Source: a candidate division KSB1 bacterium
GTDB lineage: Bacteria; Zhuqueibacterota; JdFR-76; DREG01
Length of the DNA: 24,137 nt
NCBI GenBank assembly: GCA_022566355.1
Contig: JADFJB010000069.1
Location: 1 to 24,137, forward strand
Reading direction: 5' to 3'
Shown: in pieces, positions 685-20,873 of the stretch
Position numbering within the stretch: position 1 is the stretch's first letter
How the letters are laid out: every line of letters begins with the position of its first letter
Notes under the pieces: generated by a model
Seen by the model: only the letters and a program-made list of their open reading frames with translations
What the model was told of the DNA's origin: nothing
The model's database searches: none
Translations under genes and position numbers: made by a program

Positions 685-2022
685 TTAACCGTCTATTTGC
701 GATTTCTTATTCAAATTAACAGAGATATACCCGACTGCTTTAATTTGATTGTCTTCATTCAAAATGATTCGAAGACTAAATGTTTCTCGTTCAAATTGAA
801 TCTCAATAATAGCTTGATCTTCATTTATGATCTCAACAATTTTAATTTCAATAAGTCTGCCGTATTTTTGATTGAGATATTGGTCGATGAGTAGTGCGGA
901 GGACATTGAATATTTTTCAGTAATTGTTTCACTCAATATTTTTTGTAATTTATCAGCATCTTTATTCCAAATTGCACGACTATAAATACTGATGATTTCC
1001 TTAAAACGAGCTTCCTGAATAACCTTGTTGGATAGTTCACTAAAATTGTCAGAAGCAGCACAAGAAATTACAGAACCGAGAACGGGAATTACTCCAGCCT
1101 GTAAATTATCTCCAATTTGATTGCCTCCTAATGAGTAAAACTGCAAAAGAAAGACAATGACGAAAGCTGAAACTAAAACTACAGCAAATTTGAAAGTCTT
1201 TCCTAATAAGAATTTTAATCGTGGTTTATGGTAATCCAAAAGCCTCTTTACGCGAAACTCGAAATTCATCCATGTAGGTAGAAATGCTTGGACGAACCCT
1301 AAGCCGCTGTGCCAGTGATAACGGGGTAATTTATGTCCTAACTTCCATACTTTTACAAGTGAAGCCGCAAGGGTAAGAGGCGTTTTAGTTATCTCTATAG
1401 ACACATCATCACAAGAAAGCTCACGTAAAAACAAAATTCGTTTCCATAAAATTAATTTAAACACTAAAATAAATGTTAACGCACCTAATAAGGCATAGAC
1501 TGAATTTTCGATACTAAATGTAAAGCTTAAGGCAAAAACCTGTATAATGAGTAATGGGATTGATGCAAAGAAAAGTTCCATAAACCATATTAAAGCATTG
1601 TCTCGCCGTTTAATGTGTGTCAATTCATGAACTAAAGTAATTTCCAGTTCTTCTGCAGATAATTTATCCACCAAATAATGAGACATAAAAATGGCTGGTT
1701 TAAAAGTGCCAATTGTAAAAATTAGAGGTCGAACTCTACTAAATTGGTAAAGTGGCGGAATTTTTCCTATTTGGAATTTGCAGACAGCATGTTGATATAT
1801 CTTATACAGTTTCGGATGAGAACTTTCCGTATATTGCGTAAATTTATGTTTGAGTAAATTAAATAAAATCAAATGAATACTTGTCTTGATCAAAAGAACA
1901 AAAAAAAGTGTGAAACTGAAAATCTTGAGTATGTCGACAGTCCCGCACCTGGTGGGGTTGGACATTAGGATTTGGTAATTTGTAATCAGTGTTAAATATT
2001 GTTCATTAAGCCATTCAAACAT
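685..2022 (-). CDS. M56 (BlaR1/MecR1-like) membrane metallopeptidase
   Basis: This 445-residue integral membrane protein belongs to peptidase family M56, which senses a signal and triggers cleavage or release of a BlaI-type repressor. Membrane segments lie near residues 32-58, 143-190 and 273-297. The zinc motif HELTH (132-136) faces the cytoplasm in this family, and Glu201 in RELSCDD is the likely third ligand. The C-terminal part after residue 330 is not a penicillin-binding sensor as in BlaR1. It looks like a small alpha+beta domain of the NTF2-like/DUF3887 sort, so the signal is probably not a beta-lactam. The ATG (2020-2022) overlaps the end of the upstream repressor gene by 8 bases, so the two are translationally coupled. 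No beta-lactamase gene is nearby; the likely output gene is the small membrane protein downstream. Confidence 0.88.
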   Translation of the reverse strand: MFEWLNEQYLTLITNYQILMSNPTRCGTVDILKIFSFTLFFVLLIKTSIHLILFNLLKHKFTQYTESSHPKLYKIYQHAVCKFQIGKIPPLYQFSRVRPLIFTIGTFKPAIFMSHYLVDKLSAEELEITLVHELTHIKRRDNALIWFMELFFASIPLLIIQVFALSFTFSIENSVYALLGALTFILVFKLILWKRILFLRELSCDDVSIEITKTPLTLAASLVKVWKLGHKLPRYHWHSGLGFVQAFLPTWMNFEFRVKRLLDYHKPRLKFLLGKTFKFAVVLVSAFVIVFLLQFYSLGGNQIGDNLQAGVIPVLGSVISCAASDNFSELSNKVIQEARFKEIISIYSRAIWNKDADKLQKILSETITEKYSMSSALLIDQYLNQKYGRLIEIKIVEIINEDQAIIEIQFERETFSLRIILNEDNQIKAVGYISVNLNKKSQIDG

Positions 2023-2437
2023 TTTTTTTCATCCGTTTTTGCTCGATCAATCTAGCAAGCTCATCCATTTTTTCTGGCTGAGAATCATCAATCGAATCTA
2101 TAAACTGGCTTATTGCGGGTGTCGAAAAATCAGCGAGAAGTTCTGTAATCACTTTTTTTATAGTTGATTTCGTAAACTCAGCTTTTGATTTTGCTGCATT
2201 GTATACAAATGCATTACCCTGTTTTATTTTTTGTAGCAACCCCTTCTCAGCCAATCGTGTCATCACAGTCATAACTGTTGTATATGCGATTTCTCGGGTT
2301 TTTTTCAGTTCTCCAAAAACTTCTCTCACTGTGATAGTAGTCTTTGACCAGACAACCTCCATAATATCGGCTTCAAGATCACCCAATATTTTGCGGACAC
2401 CTTTTTTATGTGGATCAAATGTAAAAGAATATTTCAT
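2015..2437 (-). CDS. blaI-like: BlaI/MecI-family transcriptional repressor
   Basis: The 140-residue protein has the length and layout of BlaI/MecI/CopY repressors. A winged helix-turn-helix spans about residues 15-82, with the pattern LGDLEADIMEVVW, TVREVFGEL, AYTTVMTVMTRLAEKGLL and a wing with GNAFVYNA. A helical dimerisation and cleavage region follows (about 88-140). It should bind DNA as a dimer at TACTAC/GTAGTA palindromes and be inactivated through its partner M56 peptidase, whose gene overlaps its 3' end by 8 bases. One such palindrome lies 28 bases before its ATG, implying autorepression, and a second lies before the small membrane protein gene. The start was chosen as the ATG at 2435-2437, which gives the usual family N-terminus. 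Confidence 0.92.
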   Translation of the reverse strand: MKYSFTFDPHKKGVRKILGDLEADIMEVVWSKTTITVREVFGELKKTREIAYTTVMTVMTRLAEKGLLQKIKQGNAFVYNAAKSKAEFTKSTIKKVITELLADFSTPAISQFIDSIDDSQPEKMDELARLIEQKRMKKNV

Positions 2438-3124: not shown

Positions 3125-4228
3125 TTAAATTCTGATGGATTCCTCTGTTTCTTTATCAAAAAAATGCGCTTTTGCCATGTTAAAAACTAAATCAACTTTC
3201 TGGCCAACCGAAGGTATATTTTGAGTCCTTATTTTGGCGACGAGGGTGTTTGATCTTGTTGTAAAATATAGATACGTTTCACTCCCCATCGGCTCAACGA
3301 CTTCAACCATTAATTTTACTTCAGATTTATCTTTTAAATTATTAGATGTAGAAGATTCATAAATATCTTCAGGCCGAATGCCAAACGTTATTTCTTTGTC
3401 AAAATAATCGGCCAACTTATTTTCAAACTTTTGGGGAATCTTTAATCTCAGGGTTTCTTCATGAAACCAAATACCATTTTCTCTACTAATTTTCCCGCTA
3501 AAGAAATTCATAGCAGGACTGCCAATAAATCCTGCTACAAATTCATTCTTCGGAAAATTGTACAAATTAAGAGGAGTATCTATTTGATGAATAATTCCAT
3601 CTTTCATTACAACGATCCGATTCCCCAGAGTCATCGCCTCGACTTGGTCATGGGTCACATAAATCATCGTCGTGTTCAGCCTGTTATATAATTTTGATAT
3701 CTCGGTGCGCATTTTAACCCGCAATTTTGCATCTAAATTTGAAAGTGGTTCATCAAATAGAAAAACCTGTGGGTTTCTAACAATAGCCCTGCCAACCGCA
3801 ACTCTCTGTTTTTGACCACCGGACAAAGCTTTAGGAGTTCTCTCAAGCAATTCAGAAATACCTAAAATATCTGCCGCCTCTTTTACCCTTCGCTGGATCT
3901 CCGTTTTTGAAACTTTGCGTAATTTGAGTCCAAAAGCCATATTCTTAAATACAGTCATATGTGGATAGAGCGCATAATTTTGAAAGACCATTGCAATATT
4001 TCTATCTTTAGGATGCACTTTGTTAATGAGTTTATCCCCGATATATAACTCGCCGCTGGTTACTTCTTCGAGACCTGCTATTAACCTTAAAGTAGTTGAC
4101 TTACCACAGCCGGATGGACCCACCAGTACAATAAATTCTTTATCTTTTACCTCAATATTTACATTGCTTACGGCAGTGATGTCATTATCATATGTTTTGC
4201 AAACTTCTTTCAGAACTACATTGGCCAT
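3125..4228 (-). CDS. msmK/ugpC-like: ABC sugar transporter ATP-binding protein (MsmK/UgpC/MalK family)
   Basis: The 367-residue cytoplasmic ATPase powers CUT1-type sugar importers. Walker A is GPSGCGKST (37-45), the Q-loop glutamine is 83, the signature is LSGGQ (135-139), Walker B is VFLFDE (155-160) with a D-loop SNLD, and the switch histidine is 193 in THDQVEAMT. A TOBE/OB-type regulatory region follows from about residue 235, including GIRPEDIY. The gene follows the beta-mannosidase gene by 31 bases, with GGAG six bases before its ATG. This ATPase family often serves several importers. Here the cognate permeases and binding protein are missing, except for a permease tail at 10386, so it may work with transporters elsewhere. 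It is the last gene of the run. Confidence 0.95.
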   Translation of the reverse strand: MANVVLKEVCKTYDNDITAVSNVNIEVKDKEFIVLVGPSGCGKSTTLRLIAGLEEVTSGELYIGDKLINKVHPKDRNIAMVFQNYALYPHMTVFKNMAFGLKLRKVSKTEIQRRVKEAADILGISELLERTPKALSGGQKQRVAVGRAIVRNPQVFLFDEPLSNLDAKLRVKMRTEISKLYNRLNTTMIYVTHDQVEAMTLGNRIVVMKDGIIHQIDTPLNLYNFPKNEFVAGFIGSPAMNFFSGKISRENGIWFHEETLRLKIPQKFENKLADYFDKEITFGIRPEDIYESSTSNNLKDKSEVKLMVEVVEPMGSETYLYFTTRSNTLVAKIRTQNIPSVGQKVDLVFNMAKAHFFDKETEESIRI

Positions 4229-4259: not shown

Positions 4260-6740
4260 CTATCCAATCCACTGAAATGAAATATCAGAAATTAATAAAT
4301 TTGCGGTTTGATCAGGCGAATAAATATCCAGAGATCGAACCTCTCCTGCATCTAAATCGAAGAAATTATCTGATAACTGAAATTGCTCATTCGCAAGTTT
4401 TATACAAATTGCTTTCACAAAGCAATCAGAAGTAATATTTAACTGCCATTGTCCACAACTCTTAGTCAACAGGTTCGTTTTTAATTTTGGAACTCCCAGG
4501 CATAGGTTCTTTATAGGTTTGAAAAAATAGCGATTTACTGCGAGAGTTTTGTCGCCATCAATCAACCGTGCGCGAATATATTGCTGGCTGGGGTCCGTTA
4601 TATTCAAGTTCGTTTGTTGAAAACTTACCAAAGGAATCGAATTATTAGCTGGAATTAAAGTTTTACTTTGGTAGATAACACTAGACTCTCCATAAAAATC
4701 GAACTTGCACACCTCTAATTCATAAGCGCTAGCGTCCTTTTTATCGTTAACAGCATAAAATTCTAAATACTTGCCATTTTCTTTATGAGCCAAAATGAGT
4801 GGAGAAAAAAACCGCCTGGTATACCAATATGCAGCCTTAGGCCTTAATTCGCTGTCGATAATGGACCAGCTGGTTACCGGCCAGCAATCGTTGAGCTGCC
4901 AAAATAACACGCCTGAGGTCAAAAACTTCTGACGGCGCCAATGCTCAATACAATATTTTAGAGCTTCCGCCTGCATCACCTGGCCATAGTAGATAAACTC
5001 ATCAAAGTTGTCCGGCACAGTAAGCTGCTCGGCAATGTAATGGTGCAACCGTTCAGACCCCTTAATTTGTTTGTTGTGATGTTGCATTACACGATGCTGT
5101 GGATTTTGAAACTCAGCGTCAATATTCTCTTGCCATGTAGGCAGACAGGCTGGGGATTGGAAGCCAAATTCTGTTACAAATCGGCTTCTATCGTCCTTTA
5201 CAACGGTCGGTGAATCCCATCCACTCCACATATTCCATTTGTGTTGATTGCCAATGCTTTCGCTATTGGGATCCTCACCGCCAAAGGGCGAGCTCTGCCA
5301 ATAAGGATTTGAGGAGCGCTCAGAAAAAAGGATATTTGGAATAACCTCGCTGAATAATTTTTCTCCAGGCATTTCCCCCACTGGGCGCCCGGATTCCTGA
5401 CGCCATATCCATTCGTTTTCATTATTACCACACCACAATACGATACTCGGGTGAAAATGAAGCTGGCGATAAATAACCCTGACTTCCTGCTTAACATTTG
5501 CTACAAAATGTTCATATTCAGGATATGAGCCGCATGCGAACATGAAATCTTGCCATACCATCAAACCGAGTTCGTCACAAAGATCGTAAAAAATTGGCTG
5601 TTCGTAAATCCCGCCGCCCCATACCCTCAGCATATTGATATTTGCATCTCTGGCCAGGGTGAGGAGGGTTCGGTATTTATCCTTTGTGATTCGCGGAAGA
5701 AAACTATCAGCGGGGATCCAATTTGCCCCTTTGCAGAAAACCTTTACATTGTTGATGCGAAATCGAAATGATTCGCCGCCGTTTTCGGGCTCTCGCTCTA
5801 ATTCAACCCGGCGCAATCCGATTTTCTTGTCAATTTTGATCTGCACTTTTCCTTCAATGCTGATCCTAAACTTCACATTATATAAAAATTGTTCTCCGAA
5901 TCCATTAGGCCACCATAACTTTGGGTTTTCTATCTTGAATTGGAAATCCTGTTTACCGGCGGCGCTTCGTATTTCTACTGTTGAGCAGTAATCCGGTCCT
6001 TCAATCGTTATTTTCCATTCGATCGATTTAACTGCAACACAAGAAACTTCCGCTTCAACCTGAACCGTCGCTTCTTTTAATGAAGCATCCAGGTCGGAAT
6101 TAATTTTAAGATTGTGCAAGAGAATATTTCCATAAGCCAAATAGATATGCCGCCAAATACCGCTGGTAGCCAACTTTGGTCCCCAATCCCAACCAAAACT
6201 GTACTGCGCTTTGCGGGCGTACACACGAAAACTATCCAGGGCGACATTCAGTTTACCGTGCTTCTTCTCAAGTTTCCTTACTTGATCAATGGGCGAGTCA
6301 AAGATAATTTCAATATTATTTTTCCCCTCATGGAGTAAGGACTTTACATCAAATTGATTTGGAATAAACATGTTGTTTGTCTCCCCAACATGTTTACCAT
6401 TGATATAAATTTGGGCGAAAGTATCGAGACCTTCAGCGCATAATTCGATTATTGGCGCACTAAGAATTTCGCGATCCATTTCAAATTCTCGCCGGTACTT
6501 CCATCCAATCTCCGCAATCCACTGCACTATATTTTCATTTTCATTAACGAATGGATCCGGAATCTTACCTGCTTTCATAAGATCGGTATGAACACTGCCT
6601 GGGACTACGGCCGGCAGCCACTCATCCGGGCTCAATAACTTTTTCGGTAAAGTTTTTATGTTCGGTGAATTCCAATCCGGTTGGAACAACCAAGCGCCAT
6701 TCAATAATAGCTTTGAAGTGGAAATATGCATTTTAATCAA
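4260..6740 (-). CDS. Glycoside hydrolase family 2 beta-mannosidase
   Basis: The roughly 826-residue retaining exo-beta-mannosidase releases terminal beta-linked mannose. It has the GH2 layout: an N-terminal jelly-roll with LNGAWLF and VPGSVHTDLM, an immunoglobulin-like domain, a TIM barrel from about residue 330, and C-terminal beta domains. Mannosidase-type features include FSFGWDWGP-like SFGWDWGP (181-188), LRVWGGGIYE (371-380), the acid/base Glu441 in GNNENEW and the nucleophile Glu524 in FVTEFGFQSP. It has no signal peptide, so it acts in the cytoplasm. It follows the GH130 gene at once; the two likely share manno-oligosaccharides or mannosyl disaccharides as substrates. The start is uncertain: TTG at 6738-6740 has AAGG eight bases upstream, while the ATG at 6729-6731 would shorten it by three residues. 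Confidence 0.93.
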   Translation of the reverse strand: MIKMHISTSKLLLNGAWLFQPDWNSPNIKTLPKKLLSPDEWLPAVVPGSVHTDLMKAGKIPDPFVNENENIVQWIAEIGWKYRREFEMDREILSAPIIELCAEGLDTFAQIYINGKHVGETNNMFIPNQFDVKSLLHEGKNNIEIIFDSPIDQVRKLEKKHGKLNVALDSFRVYARKAQYSFGWDWGPKLATSGIWRHIYLAYGNILLHNLKINSDLDASLKEATVQVEAEVSCVAVKSIEWKITIEGPDYCSTVEIRSAAGKQDFQFKIENPKLWWPNGFGEQFLYNVKFRISIEGKVQIKIDKKIGLRRVELEREPENGGESFRFRINNVKVFCKGANWIPADSFLPRITKDKYRTLLTLARDANINMLRVWGGGIYEQPIFYDLCDELGLMVWQDFMFACGSYPEYEHFVANVKQEVRVIYRQLHFHPSIVLWCGNNENEWIWRQESGRPVGEMPGEKLFSEVIPNILFSERSSNPYWQSSPFGGEDPNSESIGNQHKWNMWSGWDSPTVVKDDRSRFVTEFGFQSPACLPTWQENIDAEFQNPQHRVMQHHNKQIKGSERLHHYIAEQLTVPDNFDEFIYYGQVMQAEALKYCIEHWRRQKFLTSGVLFWQLNDCWPVTSWSIIDSELRPKAAYWYTRRFFSPLILAHKENGKYLEFYAVNDKKDASAYELEVCKFDFYGESSVIYQSKTLIPANNSIPLVSFQQTNLNITDPSQQYIRARLIDGDKTLAVNRYFFKPIKNLCLGVPKLKTNLLTKSCGQWQLNITSDCFVKAICIKLANEQFQLSDNFFDLDAGEVRSLDIYSPDQTANLLISDISFQWIG

Positions 6741-6743
6741 ACA

Positions 6744-7667
6744 TTAAACCTTGTATTTCATTAACTCTTGCAAGAGCTCGTCAAGATTGGCAACGGCAAG
6801 CCCGACAACCTTATCCGCCCCGCCATAATAAACCTGTAGTTGGTTATCAAACACAACGGCGCCCTCGGGAAAAACAACATTAGGCACATCACCTTGCTTC
6901 TCGTAATCATGTTCGGGTTCAAGGATGGGTTCCGGAAACCTGGCCAAGATCTTATTTGGATTTTCCAGGTCTAACAACGCAGCGCCGGCTCGGTAGATTA
7001 AATCTCGATCCACCCCATGATAAATAACTAACCAGCCTTCTTTTGTTTTAATTGGCGGCGCACCCCCACCGATTTTTTCAGCTTCCCATGAGTACAAAGG
7101 ACGCATGATCGTAAAATCATCCAGGTGAGAAAAATAATGGGGCCAAAATCCCTCATCGATTTTAAGGAGGTGATTGATATCCTCAAATTCCGCGATCTGA
7201 ATATTAGGCTCAATGCGATGCATCAAAACTAGTTTACCTTTAACCGGTTCTGGAAAAAACATTGCATCCTTGTCCAAAATATCTGGGATAACAACACCAT
7301 GTTTAGTAATTTTTTTGAAGTCATATGTGGACGCCAAACACACACGACAGGTTTGGCCGTCATATCCGGTATATAATATATAGTAACAGTCATCTATCTT
7401 GCATATCCTTGGATCTTCAACTCCTTGTTTTTCATAATCATACTCTCGGTTTATCAGGGGCTTTTGTCGGCGTTCCCGAATTTCACCATTCCGATCAAGA
7501 CGAGCATATCCAATCGTTGAAAAATTATCTCCCTCGACAGCTCGATAAAGCAAATGAACAGAATCACCATCTCGAATCGCAGCAGGATTGAAGGCTGCCT
7601 GTGATTCCCATGAATTTTCCTTGATTGGTTGTAAAATAATCTTATCACTTCGCTTCAGTTTGAACAT
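6744..7667 (-). CDS. Glycoside hydrolase family 130 protein (beta-mannoside phosphorylase or hydrolase)
   Basis: The 307-residue five-bladed beta-propeller belongs to GH130, whose members mostly phosphorolyse beta-mannosides to mannose 1-phosphate. Family marks are FNPAAI (26-31), YRAVEGDNFSTIGYAR (41-56), GVEDPR (82-87) with Asp85 as the likely proton donor, KDAMFFPEP, LMHRI (148-152), GGGAPPIKTKEGW, YHGV and VYYGGADKVVGLA near the end. The length fits GH130_2/_3-type members. Retained Arg and His residues (42, 87, 150-151) favour a phosphorylase, but the exact linkage (1,4-Glc, 1,4-GlcNAc, 1,4-Man or 1,2-Man) cannot be read from sequence alone. It has no signal peptide. A strong AAGGAG lies 11 bases before the ATG, and the gene is 3 bases from the beta-mannosidase frame, which implies co-translation. 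Confidence 0.92.
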   Translation of the reverse strand: MFKLKRSDKIILQPIKENSWESQAAFNPAAIRDGDSVHLLYRAVEGDNFSTIGYARLDRNGEIRERRQKPLINREYDYEKQGVEDPRICKIDDCYYILYTGYDGQTCRVCLASTYDFKKITKHGVVIPDILDKDAMFFPEPVKGKLVLMHRIEPNIQIAEFEDINHLLKIDEGFWPHYFSHLDDFTIMRPLYSWEAEKIGGGAPPIKTKEGWLVIYHGVDRDLIYRAGAALLDLENPNKILARFPEPILEPEHDYEKQGDVPNVVFPEGAVVFDNQLQVYYGGADKVVGLAVANLDELLQELMKYKV

Positions 7668-7686: not shown

Positions 7687-9072
7687 TTAGAAAACCTGTG
7701 GCCAGGGTGGTACAGCTAACTGATTTGATTGCCCCGACCGTACCGCAAGCAAAGGAATGTCAGTCAGCTTAATTGAATTTAATTTTTTCATATTAATTGA
7801 AACCGGAATTTGTGTTTTTAATTTTTGTAGTTTTTCGGAAAAAACAATGTCTTCTGAAGATTGAGCTTTCATATCCAAACTGTTTATCATGCCATTATAC
7901 AAAAAATAGTCACGCCAAATTCGAAGCTCGTCTCGAACTTCTTTGCGCTTATGCAAACCCCGGCGAACTCCCTCTCGCGCCAACAATTCATCCCTGATTA
8001 TTTCAAGTAGAATGTTGCTAAAAGTCACTTTTACATCGGTGATGGAACGTTTATCCATCGGGTTCGGACGATTAGACAATTTCTGAACAACATCGCCAAT
8101 TGTCATAACTCCATCCTTGAAGCTTGCAACAGCTTCATTCCAATTTTGACGGATTAATTCTGATTCACCCAGACTTGACATCAACTTTATTGGCGCTATT
8201 TCCGGCTGTTTTAATGAAATGTTTTTAACATTTTTTTCGATTTCGCGGACAAGCAGACCAAAGTTTCTACCTTCTATCTTTGCACCATTTCTCTTCATAA
8301 AATCATCCACGAATTTATCCGACTGTGCATCCGCCTTACGCATTCGAAGGATCTTGGTTATTTCACTCCGTTTTTGAAAAAACTGACTTTCTGTCCGGAG
8401 AGGATTTACGATAATATTGTCGATCTTCAGAACAAGGTACCCGCCATTTACTTCGAGGATTGACACTTCATTGGGTTTAAGTTTATAGATTGAATTCTCT
8501 AATTTTTCATTAACCTTGCCCCATGTAAGTTTAGCGATATGACTTTTTTCGTCGTAATCTTCACCCATTTTTTTGCGCAGCGCTGCATCGAAAGAACCAA
8601 CATCTTCAACCAGTTCGCGAAAACTAACTGCGTCTTTATGCGTCTCGGCGCTGAAATGCTTTATCACGATGGTTTTTTGCAAACGATCAAATGCCTTGTG
8701 AATTTCCTCCTCCTCAATATTAACGAGGTTCATAACTGCATCGGCGTACAATTCACGCAGAACCGCCTGAGATTCAATAATACTAATTTTCCTTTTGAAT
8801 TCACCATCCAGGTTTAATCCGGATTGAATAGCCTCGATAGCAAACAGCTTCTCACCTATCAGCATCTCTAAAAGCGCGCGATTGCCGGAATACCCATTCA
8901 CACTGAATATTCTTATCCGTGGCGTCAACTCGGCGCGCTTGATGAAATCATCGACTGTGATAATCTTGTCATCAACTTTAGCAAGAACATTTTCTTCCAA
9001 TTCGATCTGGGCGCCACAGCCAAAACTCCCTAAAAGAATGAATAAATAGAAAATAAATTGCCTGATTATCAA
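7687..9072 (-). CDS. SurA/PpiC-like periplasmic foldase, probable lipoprotein
   Basis: The 461-residue protein has an N-terminal hydrophobic segment ending LLGSFGC, a relaxed lipobox placing the anchor cysteine at about residue 19. A SurA_N-like helical region follows (VLAKVDDKIITVDDFIKRAE, LLEMLIGEKLFAIEA). A parvulin-like stretch runs about 120-220, with SFRELVEDVGSF and LEPS-like KLKPNEVSILEVNGGYLVLKI. A second helical part near the C-terminus holds RDELLAREGVRRGL. The role is probably folding of periplasmic or outer-membrane proteins; prolyl isomerase activity is not certain because the parvulin core is divergent. It starts with TTG one base after the stop of the upstream helical-core gene and lies 19 bases before the GH130 gene. 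It may be a dedicated chaperone for the secreted proteins of this locus. Confidence 0.8.
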   Translation of the reverse strand: MIIRQFIFYLFILLGSFGCGAQIELEENVLAKVDDKIITVDDFIKRAELTPRIRIFSVNGYSGNRALLEMLIGEKLFAIEAIQSGLNLDGEFKRKISIIESQAVLRELYADAVMNLVNIEEEEIHKAFDRLQKTIVIKHFSAETHKDAVSFRELVEDVGSFDAALRKKMGEDYDEKSHIAKLTWGKVNEKLENSIYKLKPNEVSILEVNGGYLVLKIDNIIVNPLRTESQFFQKRSEITKILRMRKADAQSDKFVDDFMKRNGAKIEGRNFGLLVREIEKNVKNISLKQPEIAPIKLMSSLGESELIRQNWNEAVASFKDGVMTIGDVVQKLSNRPNPMDKRSITDVKVTFSNILLEIIRDELLAREGVRRGLHKRKEVRDELRIWRDYFLYNGMINSLDMKAQSSEDIVFSEKLQKLKTQIPVSINMKKLNSIKLTDIPLLAVRSGQSNQLAVPPWPQVF

Positions 9073-9073
9073 T

Positions 9074-10381
9074 TTAATTATCTCGTAGATCTAAATATCC
9101 CTTCAGTTTTTTGAATGCAATTGGATTGTTTTCCACTTCAAGAATTGAATATAAGGCCTCAATGGTGGATTCCGCGCCGGCATTGCGATTAATTTCTTTA
9201 CTGGAAAGGATTCCATCAAAACATCGTCCGGTTTTTGGATCATACATTTCAGCTTGTGCAGGATTGGCGCCAAAAAACCATGTCGACAATTCACCAGCTA
9301 ATTCGGCATACTCTTCCTTACCGGTAATTTCAAACAGTCTCAGAGAACCTACGATCATAGGCCGTAGTGCATAGGCAATTTGGGAAAAGGAATCCACCCT
9401 GACAGCATGCAAACTGTCAGTCCTGCTCAGTTCGATTTCACGCGGCCAGCCTTGAGATATCCAATAAGGATAAAAATACTGCGCTTCAAGTTCAGCGGCA
9501 TTTAAAAAATCATGATTCTGAATTACCCTGGATATTTCCGCCAAAGCCTGTGTCTGACTGTTACCCCAGCCATGCCATATATTTTTCCACGATAAAAATG
9601 CCCCGTAAAGATATTCTTCCGGATTGCTCAGTTGCATAGCAATCATACCACTGGCAAATCGTTCCAAATATTTTATTGCACGCTCGTCATTTGAAGCCCT
9701 GGCATAACTGGCCAAACCCAGCGCAAGTTCTGTAGTTGCATCCGAGGCCGAGTTATAAAGCAGCCATTGGGGGACTAAAAAACCACCGACGGTATCAATA
9801 TTTGCATTATTCGTCAAAAGCGTGTCGATGTGTGAAAAGGTCATCTGAATATGTTTCCCTAATAGAGTCGCATATTCTGGTTCCTGCTGAATAAAAACTC
9901 GATATCCTTCTCCCATCGCCAAAATTGCTCGACCTGCCCACCAGCCGAGACTTTTGAAACTGGTTTTTCCTTTTTGATTTATCGAATAATCTGAATAAAT
10001 AAAATTATAGAATTGACCATCATCATCTTGCATAAATCGACAAAAGTCAATCAATTTTCTGCCCCGTTGCAAACTAGTCGTATCACCGGTAAATTCAAAA
10101 TGCCGTAAATAAACGACCGCTGCTCGCGCTGCATCATCCACGCAAGCGATCCCCTCATCCCCGGCATCAACCCAACCATAATCCGGGTATTCGGAATAGA
10201 TGTGTACAATTGCTATCTCATGCCCATCAATTGTAATTTCTTCATAAAGACGATTTAGATGAGCAAGATTACTCAAGGAAACAATTGATTTATTAGGATT
10301 GCTACAACTCAAATAAAGGATGGAGCAGGCTACATAAATAAGCACTTGACCATAATTCACTCTCTCTTTATTAAAAACCAT
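9074..10381 (-). CDS. Cell-envelope (alpha/alpha) helical-barrel protein, candidate glycoside-active enzyme
   Basis: The 435-residue protein has an N-terminal hydrophobic segment with Cys19 and Cys26 as possible lipid-anchor sites (neither lipobox is canonical). The rest is a helical, toroid-like domain of the kind seen in six-hairpin glycosidases and lyases: DEGIACVDDAARAAVVYLRH (75-94), DDDGQFYNFIY, WWAGRAILAMGEGY, IWHGWGNSQTQALAE and NAGAESTIEALYSIL, with repeated aromatic-rich helices. I do not recognise a named family. A close paralogue is the core of the 1007-residue protein upstream: 37 of 58 residues are identical over the segment starting NLAHL/NFAHL. Conserved acids (Asp74, Glu76, Asp82, Asp83) are candidate catalytic residues by inference. 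Its AAGGAG lies in the last codons of the permease remnant. Position next to GH130 and GH2 genes suggests a mannoside-related periplasmic function. Confidence 0.75.
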   Translation of the reverse strand: MVFNKERVNYGQVLIYVACSILYLSCSNPNKSIVSLSNLAHLNRLYEEITIDGHEIAIVHIYSEYPDYGWVDAGDEGIACVDDAARAAVVYLRHFEFTGDTTSLQRGRKLIDFCRFMQDDDGQFYNFIYSDYSINQKGKTSFKSLGWWAGRAILAMGEGYRVFIQQEPEYATLLGKHIQMTFSHIDTLLTNNANIDTVGGFLVPQWLLYNSASDATTELALGLASYARASNDERAIKYLERFASGMIAMQLSNPEEYLYGAFLSWKNIWHGWGNSQTQALAEISRVIQNHDFLNAAELEAQYFYPYWISQGWPREIELSRTDSLHAVRVDSFSQIAYALRPMIVGSLRLFEITGKEEYAELAGELSTWFFGANPAQAEMYDPKTGRCFDGILSSKEINRNAGAESTIEALYSILEVENNPIAFKKLKGYLDLRDN

Positions 10382-10385
10382 AAAC

Positions 10386-10466
10386 TCACTCCTTTATCCC
10401 GGTTGCAGCCATACTCCGAATAAAATATTTTTGAAAAAATACATAGGTAATGATTTTTTTTAACAT
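10386..10466 (-). pseudogene. Remnant: C-terminal tail of an ABC sugar permease (MalG/CUT1 type)
   Basis: In the 91-base gap between the two helical-core genes, the minus strand encodes LKKIIT followed by YVFFQKYFIRSMAATGIKE and a TGA (10386-10388). The pattern of a hydrophobic stretch, FQKYF, two small residues and G-[ILV]-K-[GE] at the very end is the hallmark of MalG-type inner-membrane sugar permeases. The remaining 250 or so residues are absent: the frame ends at the TAG that closes the 1007-residue gene (10473-10475). The last codons AAG GAG serve as the ribosome binding site for the next gene, as expected of a former permease-enzyme operon. I read it as a deletion or replacement scar; a coincidental 26-codon reading frame is less likely. 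Confidence 0.72.
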
Positions 10467-10472
10467 ATGATC

Positions 10473-13400
10473 CTATTTGAGATAAATGATTTTCTGGCTG
10501 AAACGTTGTGATTTTGTCTTTAATAAACTAAAATAGATACCACTTGGATACCGACTTGCTTCCCATGCAACCTTATGGTAACCTGCGGCGACTTTTTGAT
10601 TAATCAATGTCTCTACTTCATTGCCGAGAAGATTATATATTTTAAAAGTTATATAACTATCTTTTCCCAACTCAAAAGAAAAAGTGGTTTGTTCATTAAA
10701 TGGATTAGGATAATTTCTCCATAAAACAGTGGATATTGACTTTCGATCTCTAGCATCTTCGTCAATACCAACTGTAAATGGAAAAAACCTGGTAATCGAA
10801 AGGGTATCTCCGGTTGGATTGGCAAATACTTTTCGTTGATCCACAGGTTGTAGCAGAAAAAAATCAACTTTTGCGCTCTTATCTATATTGGCGCCTGAGA
10901 AGGAAACTTCCATTGTGTGAGCGCCTGGACCAAGATATATTGGAGAACCGACTCGATCAACCCATAAAAATTGGCTGGTTGCGCCACCCTGCAGAGACGA
11001 TAAAACCTGGCCATTCTCGAAGGAAACATCAATTGCAACTTCGTTAGCTCCACCTGTTTGATGTACAAATTGAACATAAAGCTGGTATTCTCCCGACCAA
11101 TTGAATGGATCGGGTACGAAAAATTCATATCTAACTCGATCACGAAAAGTTAATTGTAAATAACGATTATTGCTGAATTGCGCATTTCCAAGATTTCGGG
11201 CTGATATTGTTTGCGGCGGACCCGTTACAATCCCGGAATAGCTTTCAGCTTCCATGAGTAAATAGCGGTTATCCGCAACGCTCGAATAGGATAAAAACGG
11301 CATTGAAGCCGGACTATAATAAACATCCTGTAAAGCGATCAAGCACTCTACTACAGACTCGGCCCCACTGTTCAAGTTGACTCCATTTTCTTCGAGTCCG
11401 TCGAAGCTTCGTCCTGATGTAGAATCATACATAGCAAATGATTGGGGGTTGTTCCCAGTCCACCAGGCAGCAAATAACCCGGCGTACCTGGCATATTTTT
11501 CTTCCCCAGTCGCTCGAAATATCTCCATCAATCCACCGACGATGGGACTGATGTCATAGTTAATCTGTGGATAGAAGATGGGTCCAGGGCGCAATTCGTG
11601 AATTTGTTGCGAGGTGAGAATGTGAAGATAAAAATTATCGGCCTCATTTTTTGCCGATTGAATCCAATCTTCGCGGTTCATGATTCTTCCGGCAAGCGCC
11701 AGCGCCTGCGATTGACGACTACCCCAGCCATGCCAAAGATAAATATTCGGAACGAAGGACAAGTGCGCTCCGAACGGATATTCGAGAGCATCCCCGATCT
11801 GGAATAAAGCCATCCCATCGCAAAGCCTTGTTAAAAGTTCCCCAGCCCTTGGATCTTGTGAAATTTCATAGTAGTATGCAAGCCCCAAAACCGCTTCTGA
11901 AGATTGATCCGCTCCATTATTTAGAAGCCAGGACGCCGCCGGAATTTGAAAACCATGTATTGTATCATAGTTATAAGCATTCCAGGTATAAGAATCTGCT
12001 TTTTTAATTGCTTTTCTAATGCGGGTTTCCAGCTCAGTTCGCAAATCGAATTCTACATTTAATTTCGCTAAAGTATTATAGGCAAATCCCATTGCCCATA
12101 AAGCTCGACTTGCCCAGAAATTGAAACTATTGTTGTTACTCGTGCCGCCATTCTTGTTGATCGAAAAATCTGGCCAGATAAAATTATAGAAACCGCCATC
12201 CGCATCCTGCATTCTGAACAAGAAATTTAGAAGAAGGGTCGCTTTGTTCAAACTACTTTGGCTTTCCGATTCTTGAAAATGCATCAAATAAGCCACAACA
12301 GCGCGGGCGGCGTCATCCACAGCAGCGATGCCCTCATCCGAGTCACCGAGCCACGTATAATCAGGGAAACTGGAATAGATATGAACGATTGCCATTGAAT
12401 CACCGTCAACCTGGATCGTTTCAGTCAAAAAATCCAGATGTGCAAAATTGATGAATCCCCCTTTCAAGCCGGAGCCAGTTAGAATATTTGACAATAACAC
12501 CGGGTTTTCACCCTGAATTCCATCGGGATCCTGAAATGTAACTTGTATATCATAAGCAGTATTTACTAATAGATTTTTAATGTCGGCAGCATAATACGTT
12601 CGATATTTTTCCATAGAATTTTCTTCAGACCAGTCTGATGAACCGACCTTTCTGTACGAAATTGTCGCAGTGCCATTTTGATTTTCATCTCCTAAAATCC
12701 ATGCAGTTACACGAAAGATGTTGGAGGAGTGAGTTTCCGATACACTACGAACAATAGTTTGGTCAGCGGCGCCGGCTTGAATAAACAATTGCGGCCGAAT
12801 GCCAGGTTCAGGGTTTTCGCTTGAAGCGAAATCCAGGATTCCCCATTCAGCTGAGATTTTCGTTTCCCTGACCACCATACCAAAATTGCTGTCGGGATGA
12901 TTGATCCAAAATTGACATAACTCCAAAATATTCCAATTATGCCAGGTTTTTGCATTATGAGTTGGTGTAAAAACGATGGAATCCTGCAACACAGCAGATC
13001 TGTCAATCGGTATTCCATCCGCTCCGGGGATGGCCCATGATTGATTATCCAACATTGCATATTGCCAGTTTGTTTCACCGGAAACCGCTGGGCGTCCATC
13101 CAGACCGCCGGGATCCAGCCCTGTTCCTTCTCCCCAGGGACGATTTAATTTATAGATTGCCAGGGTTTTATTACCTGTCTGTTGAGTTCGCCTGGCATAA
13201 AAATACAGAGATAAAAAAGCTGAGTCAATTTGGGTAGATGAATGTATAGAACTAAGATCAAATCGAATAAGGGTATGTTTGGCATCGGTCAAACCACCAT
13301 TGCCGGTAGCTTCAAGAAGGGGCTCGTTACCCGTATTCCAACCTGGTTTATCGGCAAATATATGTACGTCACTACAGCCCAAATAGCCGTTCAGACCATC

Positions 13401-13496
13401 TTGAAAAAGAAAAGCACTTTGACCATAAATCTGTGAATCAAAAGAAAGTAATAGAAGTAGGCAGGAGAAATATCCAGTTAGATAGCCAGGTCTCAT
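10473..13496 (-). CDS. Secreted multidomain T9SS cargo with helical-barrel core and carbohydrate-binding modules
   Basis: The 1007-residue protein has a signal peptide to about residue 26 (ending IYGQS). The domains in order are: a DNRLRE-type beta-sandwich (about 30-240, with IRFDLSSI and LSLYFYARR), a fibronectin-III-like strand domain (about 245-340), a helical-barrel domain (about 348-745, with DEGIAAVDDAAR at 387-398, IWPDFSIN, WHGWGSRQSQALALAG and NSGAESVVECLIAL), a CBM6/35-like module (about 760-905, MEAESYSG to VDFFLLQP), and a type A T9SS sorting domain (928-1007, NYPNPFN to KIIYLK). The protein is probably displayed on or released from the outer surface. The core is paralogous to the smaller envelope protein downstream. 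Substrate is unproven; the GH130/GH2 context points to mannosides. The ATG at 13494-13496 has no clear ribosome binding site. Confidence 0.82.
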   Translation of the reverse strand: MRPGYLTGYFSCLLLLLSFDSQIYGQSAFLFQDGLNGYLGCSDVHIFADKPGWNTGNEPLLEATGNGGLTDAKHTLIRFDLSSIHSSTQIDSAFLSLYFYARRTQQTGNKTLAIYKLNRPWGEGTGLDPGGLDGRPAVSGETNWQYAMLDNQSWAIPGADGIPIDRSAVLQDSIVFTPTHNAKTWHNWNILELCQFWINHPDSNFGMVVRETKISAEWGILDFASSENPEPGIRPQLFIQAGAADQTIVRSVSETHSSNIFRVTAWILGDENQNGTATISYRKVGSSDWSEENSMEKYRTYYAADIKNLLVNTAYDIQVTFQDPDGIQGENPVLLSNILTGSGLKGGFINFAHLDFLTETIQVDGDSMAIVHIYSSFPDYTWLGDSDEGIAAVDDAARAVVAYLMHFQESESQSSLNKATLLLNFLFRMQDADGGFYNFIWPDFSINKNGGTSNNNSFNFWASRALWAMGFAYNTLAKLNVEFDLRTELETRIRKAIKKADSYTWNAYNYDTIHGFQIPAASWLLNNGADQSSEAVLGLAYYYEISQDPRAGELLTRLCDGMALFQIGDALEYPFGAHLSFVPNIYLWHGWGSRQSQALALAGRIMNREDWIQSAKNEADNFYLHILTSQQIHELRPGPIFYPQINYDISPIVGGLMEIFRATGEEKYARYAGLFAAWWTGNNPQSFAMYDSTSGRSFDGLEENGVNLNSGAESVVECLIALQDVYYSPASMPFLSYSSVADNRYLLMEAESYSGIVTGPPQTISARNLGNAQFSNNRYLQLTFRDRVRYEFFVPDPFNWSGEYQLYVQFVHQTGGANEVAIDVSFENGQVLSSLQGGATSQFLWVDRVGSPIYLGPGAHTMEVSFSGANIDKSAKVDFFLLQPVDQRKVFANPTGDTLSITRFFPFTVGIDEDARDRKSISTVLWRNYPNPFNEQTTFSFELGKDSYITFKIYNLLGNEVETLINQKVAAGYHKVAWEASRYPSGIYFSLLKTKSQRFSQKIIYLK

Positions 13497-13533: not shown

Positions 13534-14568
13534 TCAGAAACTTAAACCGAGAGAAAACACATGCACACTATCCAACCTTTCCATATTGCGAAATGCATAA
13601 TCGGCGCGAATTTCAGCATTCCGAAATAGCATTTTGGATTTTGTACCAATCCCGAATGACAATCCTCCTTCGGCTTCATCCAAAAATAATGACTGATATC
13701 CACCCCTGAGGAAAAAGAAATCCCGAAATCCGATTTCTGTTCCAATGTTCAAACTTTCATAATTGTCACTAGGGTGGAGTGCATCAATTGCAATTATCCA
13801 CTGGTAATCTCCTCGAGCCATCAAATTTGTAGATACCCCAAATTGAAATAAAATCGGTAAGTGCCAGGAATCCAATTCGATGTTTTGCGGAATTCGCTCA
13901 TTTGAGCCCAACTTCGATTCATCGATCCGGCCAAAGAGCCTGGTATCACGGCCGGAGAGTTGCATTTTAGTTCCAAAATTCGAAATAGACGCGCCTATGA
14001 TCATGCCTCCAAACAAATCAGTCCTGAAAGTGGTTCCCGCGTCCAGGGCAAATCCTGTAGCGCTTTCATGCCAGATATTTTGTTGAATAAATTTTGCCGT
14101 AAGACCAATCGAAAAACGATTTGTTAATTGTCTGGCGTAAGAAACAGCGGCGGCAATATCGCCGGCTTTAAAAAATTCACCCGTGCCATCTGGCATTTCC
14201 ACGGTTCTCACCGCCATATCATCCATGGTCAGGGCAGTGAAGCTAAATCCCAAACTGCCAAAATTTCCCATATTCACAACGATGCCCAAGAAATCGAAAT
14301 TGGTGCCTGCTATCCAACGCGTATGGAGCGCTACAACATCATTGCCAGCCAGCCTTGTAATTCCTGCAGGATTCCAATAGAGCGCAGTAGCATCATTCGC
14401 TATACTCACGTTAGCGCCGCCCATTGCAACACCCCGCGCCCCGATGGCAATCTCTAAGAATGTCGCAACAGAAGTTCCAGATTTTGAAACATCCGTAATG
14501 AAACCCTGTCCAAACAATGAGTTTGAAAAAAAGCAACAAATGCATAAAATCAATAATTGTCTATACAT
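13534..14568 (-). CDS. PorV/PorQ-family outer-membrane beta-barrel protein
   Basis: The 344-residue protein has a signal peptide to about residue 20 (SNSLFGQ). The N-terminal motif GARGVAMGGANVSIANDATA followed by LYWNPAGI is the diagnostic signature of PorV/PorQ (UPF0164-like) outer-membrane proteins. The remainder is alternating beta strands ending in an aromatic residue (GLSF), as barrel proteins do. In T9SS bacteria PorV shuttles cargo from the translocon to the attachment machinery. Many FCB lineages carry extra PorV-like copies beside particular secreted proteins. Here it lies 37 bases upstream of a T9SS cargo gene and downstream of the 1087-residue protein, so it may be a dedicated partner. 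AGGA precedes the ATG by five bases. Confidence 0.87.
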   Translation of the reverse strand: MYRQLLILCICCFFSNSLFGQGFITDVSKSGTSVATFLEIAIGARGVAMGGANVSIANDATALYWNPAGITRLAGNDVVALHTRWIAGTNFDFLGIVVNMGNFGSLGFSFTALTMDDMAVRTVEMPDGTGEFFKAGDIAAAVSYARQLTNRFSIGLTAKFIQQNIWHESATGFALDAGTTFRTDLFGGMIIGASISNFGTKMQLSGRDTRLFGRIDESKLGSNERIPQNIELDSWHLPILFQFGVSTNLMARGDYQWIIAIDALHPSDNYESLNIGTEIGFRDFFFLRGGYQSLFLDEAEGGLSFGIGTKSKMLFRNAEIRADYAFRNMERLDSVHVFSLGLSF

Positions 14569-18049: not shown

Positions 18050-20767
18050 TCAGAATGAATATTTAAAACCCAGAACAATCTGACGCGGCGCTGAATAAAA
18101 ATCAGGCCGTATAAAAAATTCTTCCAACGTATTAACACCACGGGGAGCCTGTTGCGCTCGCGTCAATTCGAGCGTATACGCCGCTCTACCCGTATCCCCG
18201 AAAACTTCAATTTCATTCGAATTATCGAACAGGTTGAAGACTTTAAGAAATAGGGAAAAATCCTGACCTGATAACTTCAAATGCTTGGTCATGTAAAGAT
18301 CAACATTAAAGAAAGAAGGTCTGTTGTCGCTATTTTCCAACCCAGTCCTTTGATTTTGCAACGATGGTGTGTACGGAAGTCCAGTACCTAGCTGTCCGAT
18401 AAAGCTTGTGATGAAATCACCCGGAGTTCCGATTGTAACTGTAAAATTGAGAGAATGCCGGCGATCCCAGTTTAAAGGCACGAGTTGTTTATTGATTTCA
18501 ATGGGTGGATTTGCCTGGGCCTTATTAAAATCATCATTCGGATCCGAGGCATTCCCTTCCGCAACCTGGTAGGTATAATCAAGATTGGCTCCAAAACCTT
18601 CATCTAACCGTTTTTCAAGCGAAACAGTTATGCCGCTCACTGCGCCGTAATCGCGATTAATAAATTTACTGAACTTTCGAAAATCATTCTTTATGTGAAT
18701 TTCATTTCCCAGGAGATTGCGCATATCTTTGTAGTAGCCCGTGACTGTTACGCCAAGATTTTCAGCCACCTCCTGTTGTAAACCAATTTCATACATAACC
18801 GTTCTCTGTGGTTCCAAATCAGCATTGCCAATAGAGTTACCGACGAATTCCGGGAAATTTCCAGTCAATGGAATCCTGAAATTTGGATTTTTATACAATG
18901 CCTCAAATGGTGGGGTCTGAAAAAAATGGCCATAGGAGATGTGAATAGCGCCACGGTCTGTGATTGGGTACGAGATACCGATCCTGGGACTCATTTGATA
19001 CTTGGCTGTCGCTTTGGAAAACAGGTTCCCTGGATAAGGCGGTTTCAGATCATCCAGAATGTCTATACTGTCAGGATCATTAAAGGTGACGCCGTCTGGT
19101 TCAAAATAATCGAAACGAACCCCGACATTTACAATCAGGTATTCTAATTCAATTTTGTCTTGAATATAATAAGCCAATTGATAAGGATTGTTTTCATATG
19201 TATTGAAATCGAAGCTGCCAGGCTGCGATAGCGCAGGTTGGAATCCACTGGAAGCGTCTACATGGATTTGAAAATCCTCGTAATTCAAATTATGCAATTT
19301 CACTTCCATACCGGTCTTAACCTGGTGAATATGTGAAATCTGGGCGACAAAATCTATTTTGCCTGTTTTGGTTTGAGTGCGATGTGAGAAATGCCAGTTT
19401 TCAGTGCCCCCACTCAGAAAAGCATTTCCACTTACATCCCGTTTTCTTTCAGGATTGACATAGTTGGGATCAAGGGAATTTTCAAACACCCGTTGTTCGT
19501 ATTTCGTCGTAAAAACCGATGCAAGCAGGTCCAGGAAAGCAGAACCGCTGAAGACATGTGTGTAACCGGCGCTGAACAACGATCCCCTCTGAAATCGTAG
19601 ATAGTCCCCATCCGGATTTAATTGAAATCGATGATTGTAATCTCTGTAATCCCGTTTTTGATAAAATCCATGTAAAACAATTCCTTTAGCAGCTCCCGCT
19701 TTTATCGAAAGCTTTCCCTGCAAAGTCAGCCTCTGATTAAAATTCATTGGGACAAATGCCCGATCACCAGTCGAACCTACATGCCATTCTTGTGGATCAT
19801 TAGCGGAAAAATTTGAGGAATCGGAGGGATTGAAAATCCTTTGGCCATAAAGGTAACCATCATTATTTAGATACCGCCCAGACAAAAAGAATTTCAACAG
19901 ATTCTTAAGGCCGGGAACAGGACCGCTTAAGCTGCCCTGGAGATTGTATATATCGGATGGTGAAATATCATCAATATTGCTATAGACCTCCCTTCGACCA
20001 CTCACATAATCACCGCTATATGCGGAAAATTGCCCCGAATAATAATCCTTTGGAATTTTGGTAACCTGGTTCACCACACCGGAAAGCGCTTCACCATACT
20101 CAGCATTAAAAGTACCAGTGAGTACTTGCACTTCTTCTATTGCATTGACTTCGGCCTGTATGGAGAAATCACCTGAGAAAACATCTACTACGGAAACACC
20201 GTCAATCAAATATTTGACTTCGTTCGACCGGCCTCCACGAAAATGCCCGTTAACCACGCCTGCCTGAAGGTTTACGACCGTGGCCACATCCTCAATAGGC
20301 AGCATGGCAATTTGATCGCCGTCCACCTTAGCAATTGTTGATGTTAAATCTCTTTGGACGATTGGCCGCTCGGCGCTTATTATAACTTCACCCATTTCGA
20401 TGGCCGCAGGTTCCAGCTTAAAATTCACCCGTGTTGTCAGGTCTATGGAGACTTTGACATTATTTACAATGTAAGAAGTATAGCCAATGGCCATGGCTTT
20501 TAATTGGTAATTACCTGGATGAATATTTAAGATAAAGTAATTTCCATCTAAATCGGTAGCTGCCCCTTTGTTGGTCCCTACAAGAACGACATTCACCCCA
20601 ATGAGTGGCTCTTGGGTCGTCGCGTCCAAGACTTTGCCGGCAATTTTCCCCGTAGTTCCAGCCCATGCGGCAGTTGTTGCAACAACCAGAAATACTAAGC
20701 TATAAGAAGAGACTTTCCAAAGAAGTTTTTGAATCGACATAAAATGGAATTTCACTTTTACTTTCAT
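18050..20767 (-). CDS. TonB-dependent outer-membrane receptor with CarboxypepD_reg-like domain
   Basis: The roughly 905-residue protein has a signal peptide (cleavage near AAWA-GTTG), then a carboxypeptidase-regulatory-like beta domain (GKIAGKVLDATTQEPLIGVN to about residue 120), a plug domain (EVIISAERPIV, LIDGVSVVD, IEEVQVLTGTFNAEYG) and a 22-strand-type barrel ending in FKYSF. It imports ligands into the periplasm using TonB energy. The domain order is like SusC, but no SusD-like lipoprotein gene follows; a large secreted protein does. Given the downstream genes the ligand may be a beta-mannoside. The ATG at 20765-20767 was chosen. A TTG at 20788 would add seven residues, and an ATG at 20740 would give an even more typical signal peptide (MSIQKLLWK). 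None has a strong ribosome binding site. Confidence 0.93.
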   Translation of the reverse strand: MKVKVKFHFMSIQKLLWKVSSYSLVFLVVATTAAWAGTTGKIAGKVLDATTQEPLIGVNVVLVGTNKGAATDLDGNYFILNIHPGNYQLKAMAIGYTSYIVNNVKVSIDLTTRVNFKLEPAAIEMGEVIISAERPIVQRDLTSTIAKVDGDQIAMLPIEDVATVVNLQAGVVNGHFRGGRSNEVKYLIDGVSVVDVFSGDFSIQAEVNAIEEVQVLTGTFNAEYGEALSGVVNQVTKIPKDYYSGQFSAYSGDYVSGRREVYSNIDDISPSDIYNLQGSLSGPVPGLKNLLKFFLSGRYLNNDGYLYGQRIFNPSDSSNFSANDPQEWHVGSTGDRAFVPMNFNQRLTLQGKLSIKAGAAKGIVLHGFYQKRDYRDYNHRFQLNPDGDYLRFQRGSLFSAGYTHVFSGSAFLDLLASVFTTKYEQRVFENSLDPNYVNPERKRDVSGNAFLSGGTENWHFSHRTQTKTGKIDFVAQISHIHQVKTGMEVKLHNLNYEDFQIHVDASSGFQPALSQPGSFDFNTYENNPYQLAYYIQDKIELEYLIVNVGVRFDYFEPDGVTFNDPDSIDILDDLKPPYPGNLFSKATAKYQMSPRIGISYPITDRGAIHISYGHFFQTPPFEALYKNPNFRIPLTGNFPEFVGNSIGNADLEPQRTVMYEIGLQQEVAENLGVTVTGYYKDMRNLLGNEIHIKNDFRKFSKFINRDYGAVSGITVSLEKRLDEGFGANLDYTYQVAEGNASDPNDDFNKAQANPPIEINKQLVPLNWDRRHSLNFTVTIGTPGDFITSFIGQLGTGLPYTPSLQNQRTGLENSDNRPSFFNVDLYMTKHLKLSGQDFSLFLKVFNLFDNSNEIEVFGDTGRAAYTLELTRAQQAPRGVNTLEEFFIRPDFYSAPRQIVLGFKYSF

Positions 20768-20873
20768 TTTTTCAAAGTAAGGATCCAAACTGAATTATCA
20801 AATCAAAGGTAACTCATAAAAAAAGGGAACATCCACCATTTGGAGAATAAATTAATTCCTCTATCTTCAATTC

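What the first reader, a model, noticed from the sequence alone, without database searches (positions are those of the whole stretch)
9074..13496. Paralogous pair of an apparently uncharacterised helical-barrel enzyme family, one surface and one periplasmic
The DEGIA-VDDAAR family core appears twice in adjacent genes: as a probable lipid-anchored 435-residue protein and as the core of a 1007-residue T9SS cargo with DNRLRE, FN3-like and CBM6/35-like modules. The first block is 37/58 identical. The fold resembles six-hairpin glycosidases, the modules bind sugars, and the flanking genes process beta-mannosides. A new glycoside hydrolase, lyase or epimerase family is possible, working in series outside and inside the outer membrane.
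Basis: partly seen in the sequence, partly recalled or inferred. Interest (0 to 1): 0.8.

Follow-up and report, generated by a model that had tools for sequence, protein, structure and literature searches.

The report
Secreted mannoside-locus helical-barrel enzyme family
Two neighbouring genes encode distant cousins of an unnamed family of secreted sugar-acting enzymes that travels with beta-mannoside uptake genes in many bacteria; one relative already has a solved but unexplained crystal structure, and the family is probably a still unrecognised mannoside-cutting enzyme.

Summary
The 435-aa protein (9074-10381, minus) and residues ~350-740 of the 1007-aa protein (10473-13496, minus) share one domain, 41% identical over 408 aa. 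The window proteins match no Pfam or NCBIfam family there. The fold is not unknown: 7TEM (Yersinia pestis YPO2471, 'putative exported protein') is a full-length relative (E 2e-87; Z 59) with no function reported in the papers searched. AlphaFold gives an (alpha/alpha)6 barrel at pLDDT 95.6. Relatives occur in at least ten phyla, mostly secreted, and sit beside a sugar ABC importer and GH130 in about 85% of complete loci, often with a GH2 beta-mannosidase. The window's GH130 is closest to beta-1,2-mannoside phosphorylases. A sister branch is cytosolic, fused or adjacent to a GT4 glycosyltransferase. Asp82, Asp83, Asp389 and Glu404 (short-protein numbering) are the acids conserved in both branches, at the mouths of inner helices 1 and 6, as in GH9, the only known family with in-register profile similarity. 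Best reading: a new (alpha/alpha)6 glycoside hydrolase family, distantly GH9-related, cutting extracellular mannosides, plausibly beta-1,2. Epimerase and lyase readings are disfavoured. The pair are not recent duplicates. Activity and linkage are untested.

The parts
9074..10381 (-). 435-aa secreted, probably lipid-anchored (alpha/alpha)6-barrel protein (family core = residues 38-435)
10473..13496 (-). 1007-aa T9SS cargo: DNRLRE (43-239), linker/FN3-like (unproven), family core (~350-740), CBM6/36-like sandwich (~741-905, low confidence), T9SS type A tail (~929-1004)
10133..10138 (-). Asp82-Asp83 codons of the short protein, N-terminus of inner helix 1; invariant in 66 relatives, conserved in both branches
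9170..9172 (-). Glu404 codon of the short protein, N-terminus of the last inner helix; conserved in both branches
9215..9217 (-). Asp389 codon (FDG motif) of the short protein; conserved in both branches
12312..12317 (-). Asp394-Asp395 codons of the long protein (equivalent of Asp82-Asp83)
11355..11357 (-). Glu714 codon of the long protein (equivalent of Glu404)
6744..7667 (-). [quoted passage not shown]
4260..6740 (-). GH2 beta-mannosidase
3125..4228 (-). MalK/UgpC-type sugar ABC transporter ATPase
7687..9072 (-). PPIC-type peptidyl-prolyl isomerase, recurrent neighbour of the family
13534..14568 (-). PorV-like outer-membrane protein, recurrent neighbour of the family

Best explanation
The shared domain is the catalytic domain of an uncharacterised, secreted (alpha/alpha)6-barrel glycoside hydrolase family, distantly related to GH9. 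It cuts mannose-containing glycans outside the cytoplasm, most plausibly beta-mannosides and perhaps beta-1,2-mannan, into oligosaccharides. In most relatives these are imported by the co-encoded ABC transporter and then split by GH130 phosphorylases and GH2 beta-mannosidase inside the cell. Asp82/Asp83 at the mouth of inner helix 1 and Glu404 at the mouth of inner helix 6 are the likely catalytic base and acid of an inverting mechanism, as in GH9. The short copy is anchored to the cell and the long copy is exported by T9SS with a probable sugar-binding module. Shown: homology, fold, conservation, secretion signals, gene context. Inferred: hydrolysis, stereochemistry, catalytic roles, linkage.
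For: (alpha/alpha)6 fold at pLDDT 95.6, with conserved residues at the N-termini of the six inner helices. Asp82, Asp83, Asp389 and Glu404 are kept in the secreted branch and in the cytosolic sister branch and are invariant in 66 full-length relatives. Pfam GH9 matches 4 of 24 and 5 of 66 members at E <= 0.01 and 0.001; the three members scanned alone score 35-41 bits, above Pfam's cut-off of 27.7. hhalign to GH9: probability 96%, in register. Within 8 kb GH130 is found in 35 of 40 complete loci, SBP in 32, permeases in 33-34, GH2 in 22; 140 of 146 of these genes lie on the same strand. The same layout stands on a Sphingomonas plasmid and in Bacillota. The GH130 is nearest to beta-1,2-mannoside phosphorylases and the GH2 to beta-mannosidases. 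Most members carry signal sequences, and some carry CBM-like modules.
Against: No activity is known for any member, including 7TEM. The GH9 alignment covers only the middle of the domain and leaves out both GH9 catalytic motifs, and most members, the window's two included, do not reach the GH9 cut-off. The window's genome shows no homologue of the usual binding protein. The sister branch pairs with GT4 enzymes, which as retaining transferases make alpha-linkages from GDP-mannose, so an alpha-mannan substrate is not excluded.
Confidence: 0.5

Rival explanations
1. [quoted passage not shown]
For: The sister branch is fused or adjacent to a GT4, and GH130 stands beside it in some loci. GH189 shows that such a barrel can only transglycosylate (PMC10834661).
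Against: The secreted branch stands with an importer and degradative enzymes. No sequence link to GH189 was tested or found; GH144/162/189 are not among the listed structural neighbours (a missing match is not evidence).
Confidence: 0.12
2. An alpha-mannanase working like GH76, cutting the alpha-mannan part of a glycan capped with beta-1,2-mannose.
For: GH76 structures superpose at Z 24-26, also carry adjacent aspartates, and beta-1,2-caps on yeast mannan are handled by GH130 (PMC4599007). GT4 enzymes make alpha-linkages.
Against: Pfam GH76 matches only 1 of 24 members, weakly, and the listed neighbours contain no recognised GH92, GH125 or GH38. Sequence similarity favours GH9.
Confidence: 0.12
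3. A sugar 2-epimerase of the AGE/cellobiose 2-epimerase type.
For: AGE-family epimerases are the best non-family structural neighbours (Foldseek 1e-8; Z 29) and mannobiose 2-epimerisation is a known step in mannan use.
Against: Profile alignment is shifted by about half the domain even when forced to be global. The last inner helix opens with N-x-N-x-G-A-E-S instead of the AGE histidine (family knowledge). Secreted enzymes with CBM-like modules would be odd for reducing-end epimerases.
Confidence: 0.07
4. A polysaccharide lyase.
For: (alpha/alpha) toroid lyases exist and appear in the structural list (5no8, Z 24); conserved His and Tyr residues are present; a PfkB kinase and a dehydrogenase occur in some loci.
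Against: GH130 and GH2 need neutral mannosides; no other uronate genes were seen in the loci.
Confidence: 0.07
5. A non-catalytic glycan-binding or scaffold protein.
For: SusD-like helical binding proteins stand in comparable loci of other bacteria (general knowledge); no activity is known for any member.
Against: Invariant acids clustered at inner-helix mouths and kept in a cytosolic branch point to catalysis.
Confidence: 0.12

Closest known systems
YPO2471 of Yersinia pestis (PDB 7TEM)
   Same: Same family over the full length: E 1.7e-87 with the short and 2.8e-56 with the long protein; profile E 3e-152; model superposes at rmsd 1.5 A over 395 residues.
   Different: Deposited only as 'putative exported protein'; no paper or function found. 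The chain (427 residues) has no T9SS, DNRLRE or CBM parts.
GH9 (inverting beta-glucanases, exo-beta-D-glucosaminidases)
   Same: (alpha/alpha)6 fold, in-register profile similarity, acids at the mouths of the first and last inner helices.
   Different: No DAGD motif and no NE..(I)N.NA motif; shorter; most members below Pfam's cut-off.
AGE superfamily (cellobiose 2-epimerase, N-acylglucosamine 2-epimerase, YihS)
   Same: Fold (Z about 29, rmsd 3.1-3.5 over ~330 residues).
   Different: No in-register sequence similarity; Glu/Asp-rich instead of the His pair.
[quoted passage not shown]
   Same: Same logic in the sister branch: glycosyltransferase plus (alpha/alpha)6 domain, with a phosphorylase nearby in some loci.
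   Different: GT4 and GH130 instead; GDP-mannose chemistry; secreted branch is degradative in context; no sequence link shown.
Thermoanaerobacter GH130 cluster (Teth514_1785-1796)
   Same: ABC importer, two GH130 beta-1,2-mannoside phosphorylases, GH5, GT4 and two hypothetical proteins (PMC4264767).
   Different: Whether those hypothetical proteins belong to this family was not tested here.

Membership tests
YPO2471/7TEM family | Full-length sequence similarity and same fold | tested here: met
   phmmer E 1.7e-87 over residues 32-433; profile E 3e-152; Z 59.1, rmsd 1.5 over 395
GH9 | Score above the Pfam PF00759 cut-off | tested here: inconclusive
   Window proteins: no hit. 4/24 and 5/66 relatives hit; three scanned alone lie above the cut-off, best 41.3 bits vs 27.7, over profile 154-372 of 444 only
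GH9 | DAGD catalytic base motif | tested here: not met
   Family has invariant (V/I)DDxAR at the corresponding helix; no DAGD
GH9 | C-terminal NE motif with the catalytic acid | tested here: inconclusive
   Family has N-x-N-x-GAES; Glu404 is in a similar topological place, but the alignment ends before this region
AGE-type 2-epimerase | In-register similarity with the conserved GHxxE motif and the catalytic His pair | tested here: not met
   hhalign register shifted by half the domain, local and global
GH76 | Pfam PF03663 above cut-off | tested here: not met
   1 of 24 members at E 0.009 only; none of 66 at E <= 0.001
GH88/GH105 | Profile similarity | tested here: not met
   hhalign probability 9.5% over 21 columns; 2 of 66 members at E about 8e-4
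T9SS type A cargo (long protein) | C-terminal sorting domain | tested here: met
   PF18962 E 2.4e-9, TIGR04183 E 1.1e-8
New CAZy GH family | Demonstrated glycosidase activity | not testable with these tools
   Needs enzyme assay; CAZy itself could not be searched

The most novel reading that the evidence does not exclude
The domain founds a new glycoside hydrolase family whose secreted members depolymerise a beta-1,2-linked mannan, supplying the missing extracellular step before the known GH130 beta-1,2-mannoside phosphorylases, while the cytosolic sister domain trims or ends the product of its GT4 partner in a widespread bacterial mannan-making system.
Probability: 0.18. Interest if true: 0.8.

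Novelty: new variant of a known kind. Interest (0 to 1): 0.55.

Why it matters
The family spans at least ten phyla, has a solved structure waiting for a function, and has a specific context-based substrate prediction. If it cuts beta-1,2-mannan it would supply an extracellular depolymerase for GH130 beta-1,2-mannoside phosphorylases, for which none was found in the papers searched, and give a tool for beta-1,2-mannans of fungi, protozoa and O-antigens. The sister branch linked to GT4 points to an undescribed mannose-based glycan in many Bacillota and KSB1 genomes.

Tried and rejected
Papers on YPO2471/7TEM: none in the held library; papers on a beta-1,2-mannan depolymerase: none found. Epimerase: rejected by shifted register. 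GH76 and GH88: weak or no profile link. Recent local duplication: rejected by the tree; the long copy is 82% identical to a protein of a relative in the same taxonomic family (L025) and groups with Bacillota proteins, 94% support, on a long branch. A homologue of the locus's usual binding protein in the window's genome: none found. GH144/162/189 barrels are not among the structural rows shown, which does not exclude them. The C-terminal module's model is poor (pLDDT 67), so its class is only indicative.

Full report
OBSERVATION. The window is a whole contig of a 4.62-Mb genome, in a group whose named relatives are KSB1/Calditrichota-like MAGs. Two minus-strand ORFs cover the reported span: 435 aa (9074-10381) and 1007 aa (10473-13496). 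They align over 408 residues at 41% identity, E 2e-81, with 37 identities in the first aligned block. Pfam and NCBIfam name nothing in the shared domain of either. In the long protein the DNRLRE domain and the T9SS tail are confirmed. The FN3-like stretch has no profile support, and the module at ~741-905 looks like a CBM6/36-type sandwich only in a low-confidence model.

ONE SOLVED RELATIVE. phmmer against the PDB finds 7TEM, 'Putative exported protein YPO2471', over the whole length (E 1.7e-87; 2.8e-56 for the long protein; profile E 3e-152). No paper in the held library mentions it. The family is thus structurally known and functionally blank.

FOLD. AlphaFold2 with 24 relatives gives pLDDT 95.6 and pTM 0.94. 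7TEM superposes at Z 59.1, rmsd 1.5 A over 395 residues; next come AGE epimerases (Z 28-29), GH9 (Z 26-27) and GH76 (Z 24-26). Fold alone cannot choose among these. Sequence favours GH9: Pfam GH9 matches 4/24 and 5/66 members, three of them checked alone at 35-41 bits against a cut-off of 27.7; the GH9 search of related genomes also rang on family members; hhalign gives 96% in register. AGE aligns only in a shifted register and GH88 not at all. The GH9 match covers the middle of the domain and neither GH9 catalytic motif is present, so this is kinship, not membership.

CONSERVATION. Numbering is of the 435-aa protein (model residue + 37). Invariant in 66 full-length relatives are Glu76, Asp82, Asp83, Glu299, Asp389, Glu404 and Glu408 among acids, with Arg86, Asn126, Arg151, His270, Tyr337, Asn373 and Asn398. 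A sister branch, recognised by (T)DDNARA, keeps His41, Asp82, Asp83, Arg86, Asn126, Arg151, Asn274, Asn373, Tyr380, Asp389, Asn398, Asn400 and Glu404. Asp82/Asp83 open the first inner helix and Glu404 the last, the same topological places as the GH9 base and acid (family knowledge). The long copy keeps all of these acids but has Ser for Arg340 and Ser for Asn274, so its specificity may differ.

CONTEXT. Eighty named relatives come from KSB1, Calditrichota, Bacteroidota, Ignavibacteriota, Chlorobiota, Balneolota, Rhodothermota, Stahlbacteria/WOR-3, Planctomycetota and Bacillota; a Sphingomonas plasmid adds Pseudomonadota. In 40 loci with at least 5 kb on both sides, GH130 lies within 8 kb in 35, the ABC binding protein in 32, permeases in 33-34, GH2 in 22; 140 of 146 of these neighbours are on the same strand. 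The loci were chosen by the barrel protein only, so this is not circular. The window's GH130 is closest to 1,2-beta-oligomannan phosphorylase and beta-1,2-mannobiose phosphorylase (E 8e-70 and 8e-66; beta-1,4-type enzymes at 2e-35 or weaker), and the GH2 to beta-mannosidases. A Thermoanaerobacter GH130 cluster has the same kind of ABC importer, a GH5, a GT4 and two hypothetical proteins (PMC4264767). The window's genome shows no homologue of the usual binding protein, though a MalK-type ATPase is present.

LOCATION. Of 74 relatives, 24 have a lipobox-like cysteine and 43 more a hydrophobic signal stretch. The short protein is probably a lipoprotein (which membrane face is unknown); the long one is a T9SS cargo. 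They are not recent duplicates: the short one lies with KSB1 relatives, the long one with L025 (82% identical) and Bacillota proteins (94% support, long branch).

SISTER BRANCH. In Bacillota (105 of 398 genomes with any match to the profile, mostly of this kind) and in KSB1 genomes a cytosolic form is a ~350-aa protein next to a GT4-like glycosyltransferase, or a ~780-aa GT4 fusion. [quoted passage not shown] The analogy is a lead, not evidence of homology.

MECHANISM. Most likely: a secreted, inverting glycoside hydrolase with Asp82/Asp83 as base and Glu404 as acid, releasing mannooligosaccharides that the ABC importer takes up for GH130 and GH2. Linkage is the weakest point: GH130 kinship suggests beta-1,2, GH2 allows beta-1,4, and the GT4 partner of the sister branch would allow alpha. 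Transglycosylase, GH76-like alpha-mannanase, epimerase, lyase and binding-protein readings are given with lower weight.

VERDICT. A real, widespread family without a functional name, with a solved structure and a specific context-based prediction. I rate it a new variant of a known kind (probable new GH family in the (alpha/alpha)6 superfamily). CAZy could not be searched, so an unpublished or very recent assignment cannot be excluded.

Noticed in passing
L084:5217-7550, L083:5201-7534, L236:8329-9408, L240:7994-9046: Cytosolic sister branch ('TDDNARA ... NQNEGAES') fused to or next to a GT4-like glycosyltransferase, in many Bacillota and KSB1 genomes, beside GH130 in some loci; no Pfam family covers this domain.
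   Followed up: partly
L036:7333-9894: An ~850-aa secreted protein with weak GDE_C/GH94/MGH1-like matches stands near the family in 18 of 40 complete loci; it may be another uncharacterised mannoside enzyme.
   Followed up: partly
L032:3297-6500: A ~1050-aa T9SS protein with LamG/PKD modules and an unassigned N-terminal ~550 residues recurs in 12 of 40 loci.
   Followed up: no
window 3125-4228 and genome G000: A sugar ABC ATPase is present, but no homologue of the binding protein usual in such loci was found in the 98.5%-complete genome; uptake may run through another system such as the TonB-type receptor at 18050-20788.
   Followed up: partly
window 7687-9072 and 13534-14568: A PPIC-type isomerase and a PorV-like protein recur beside this family in other loci (15 and 16 of 40), suggesting a conserved export or outer-membrane module tied to the mannoside locus.
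   Followed up: no
window 685-2437: M56 (BlaR1-like) peptidase and BlaI-type repressor pair at the contig end, unrelated to the finding.
   Followed up: no
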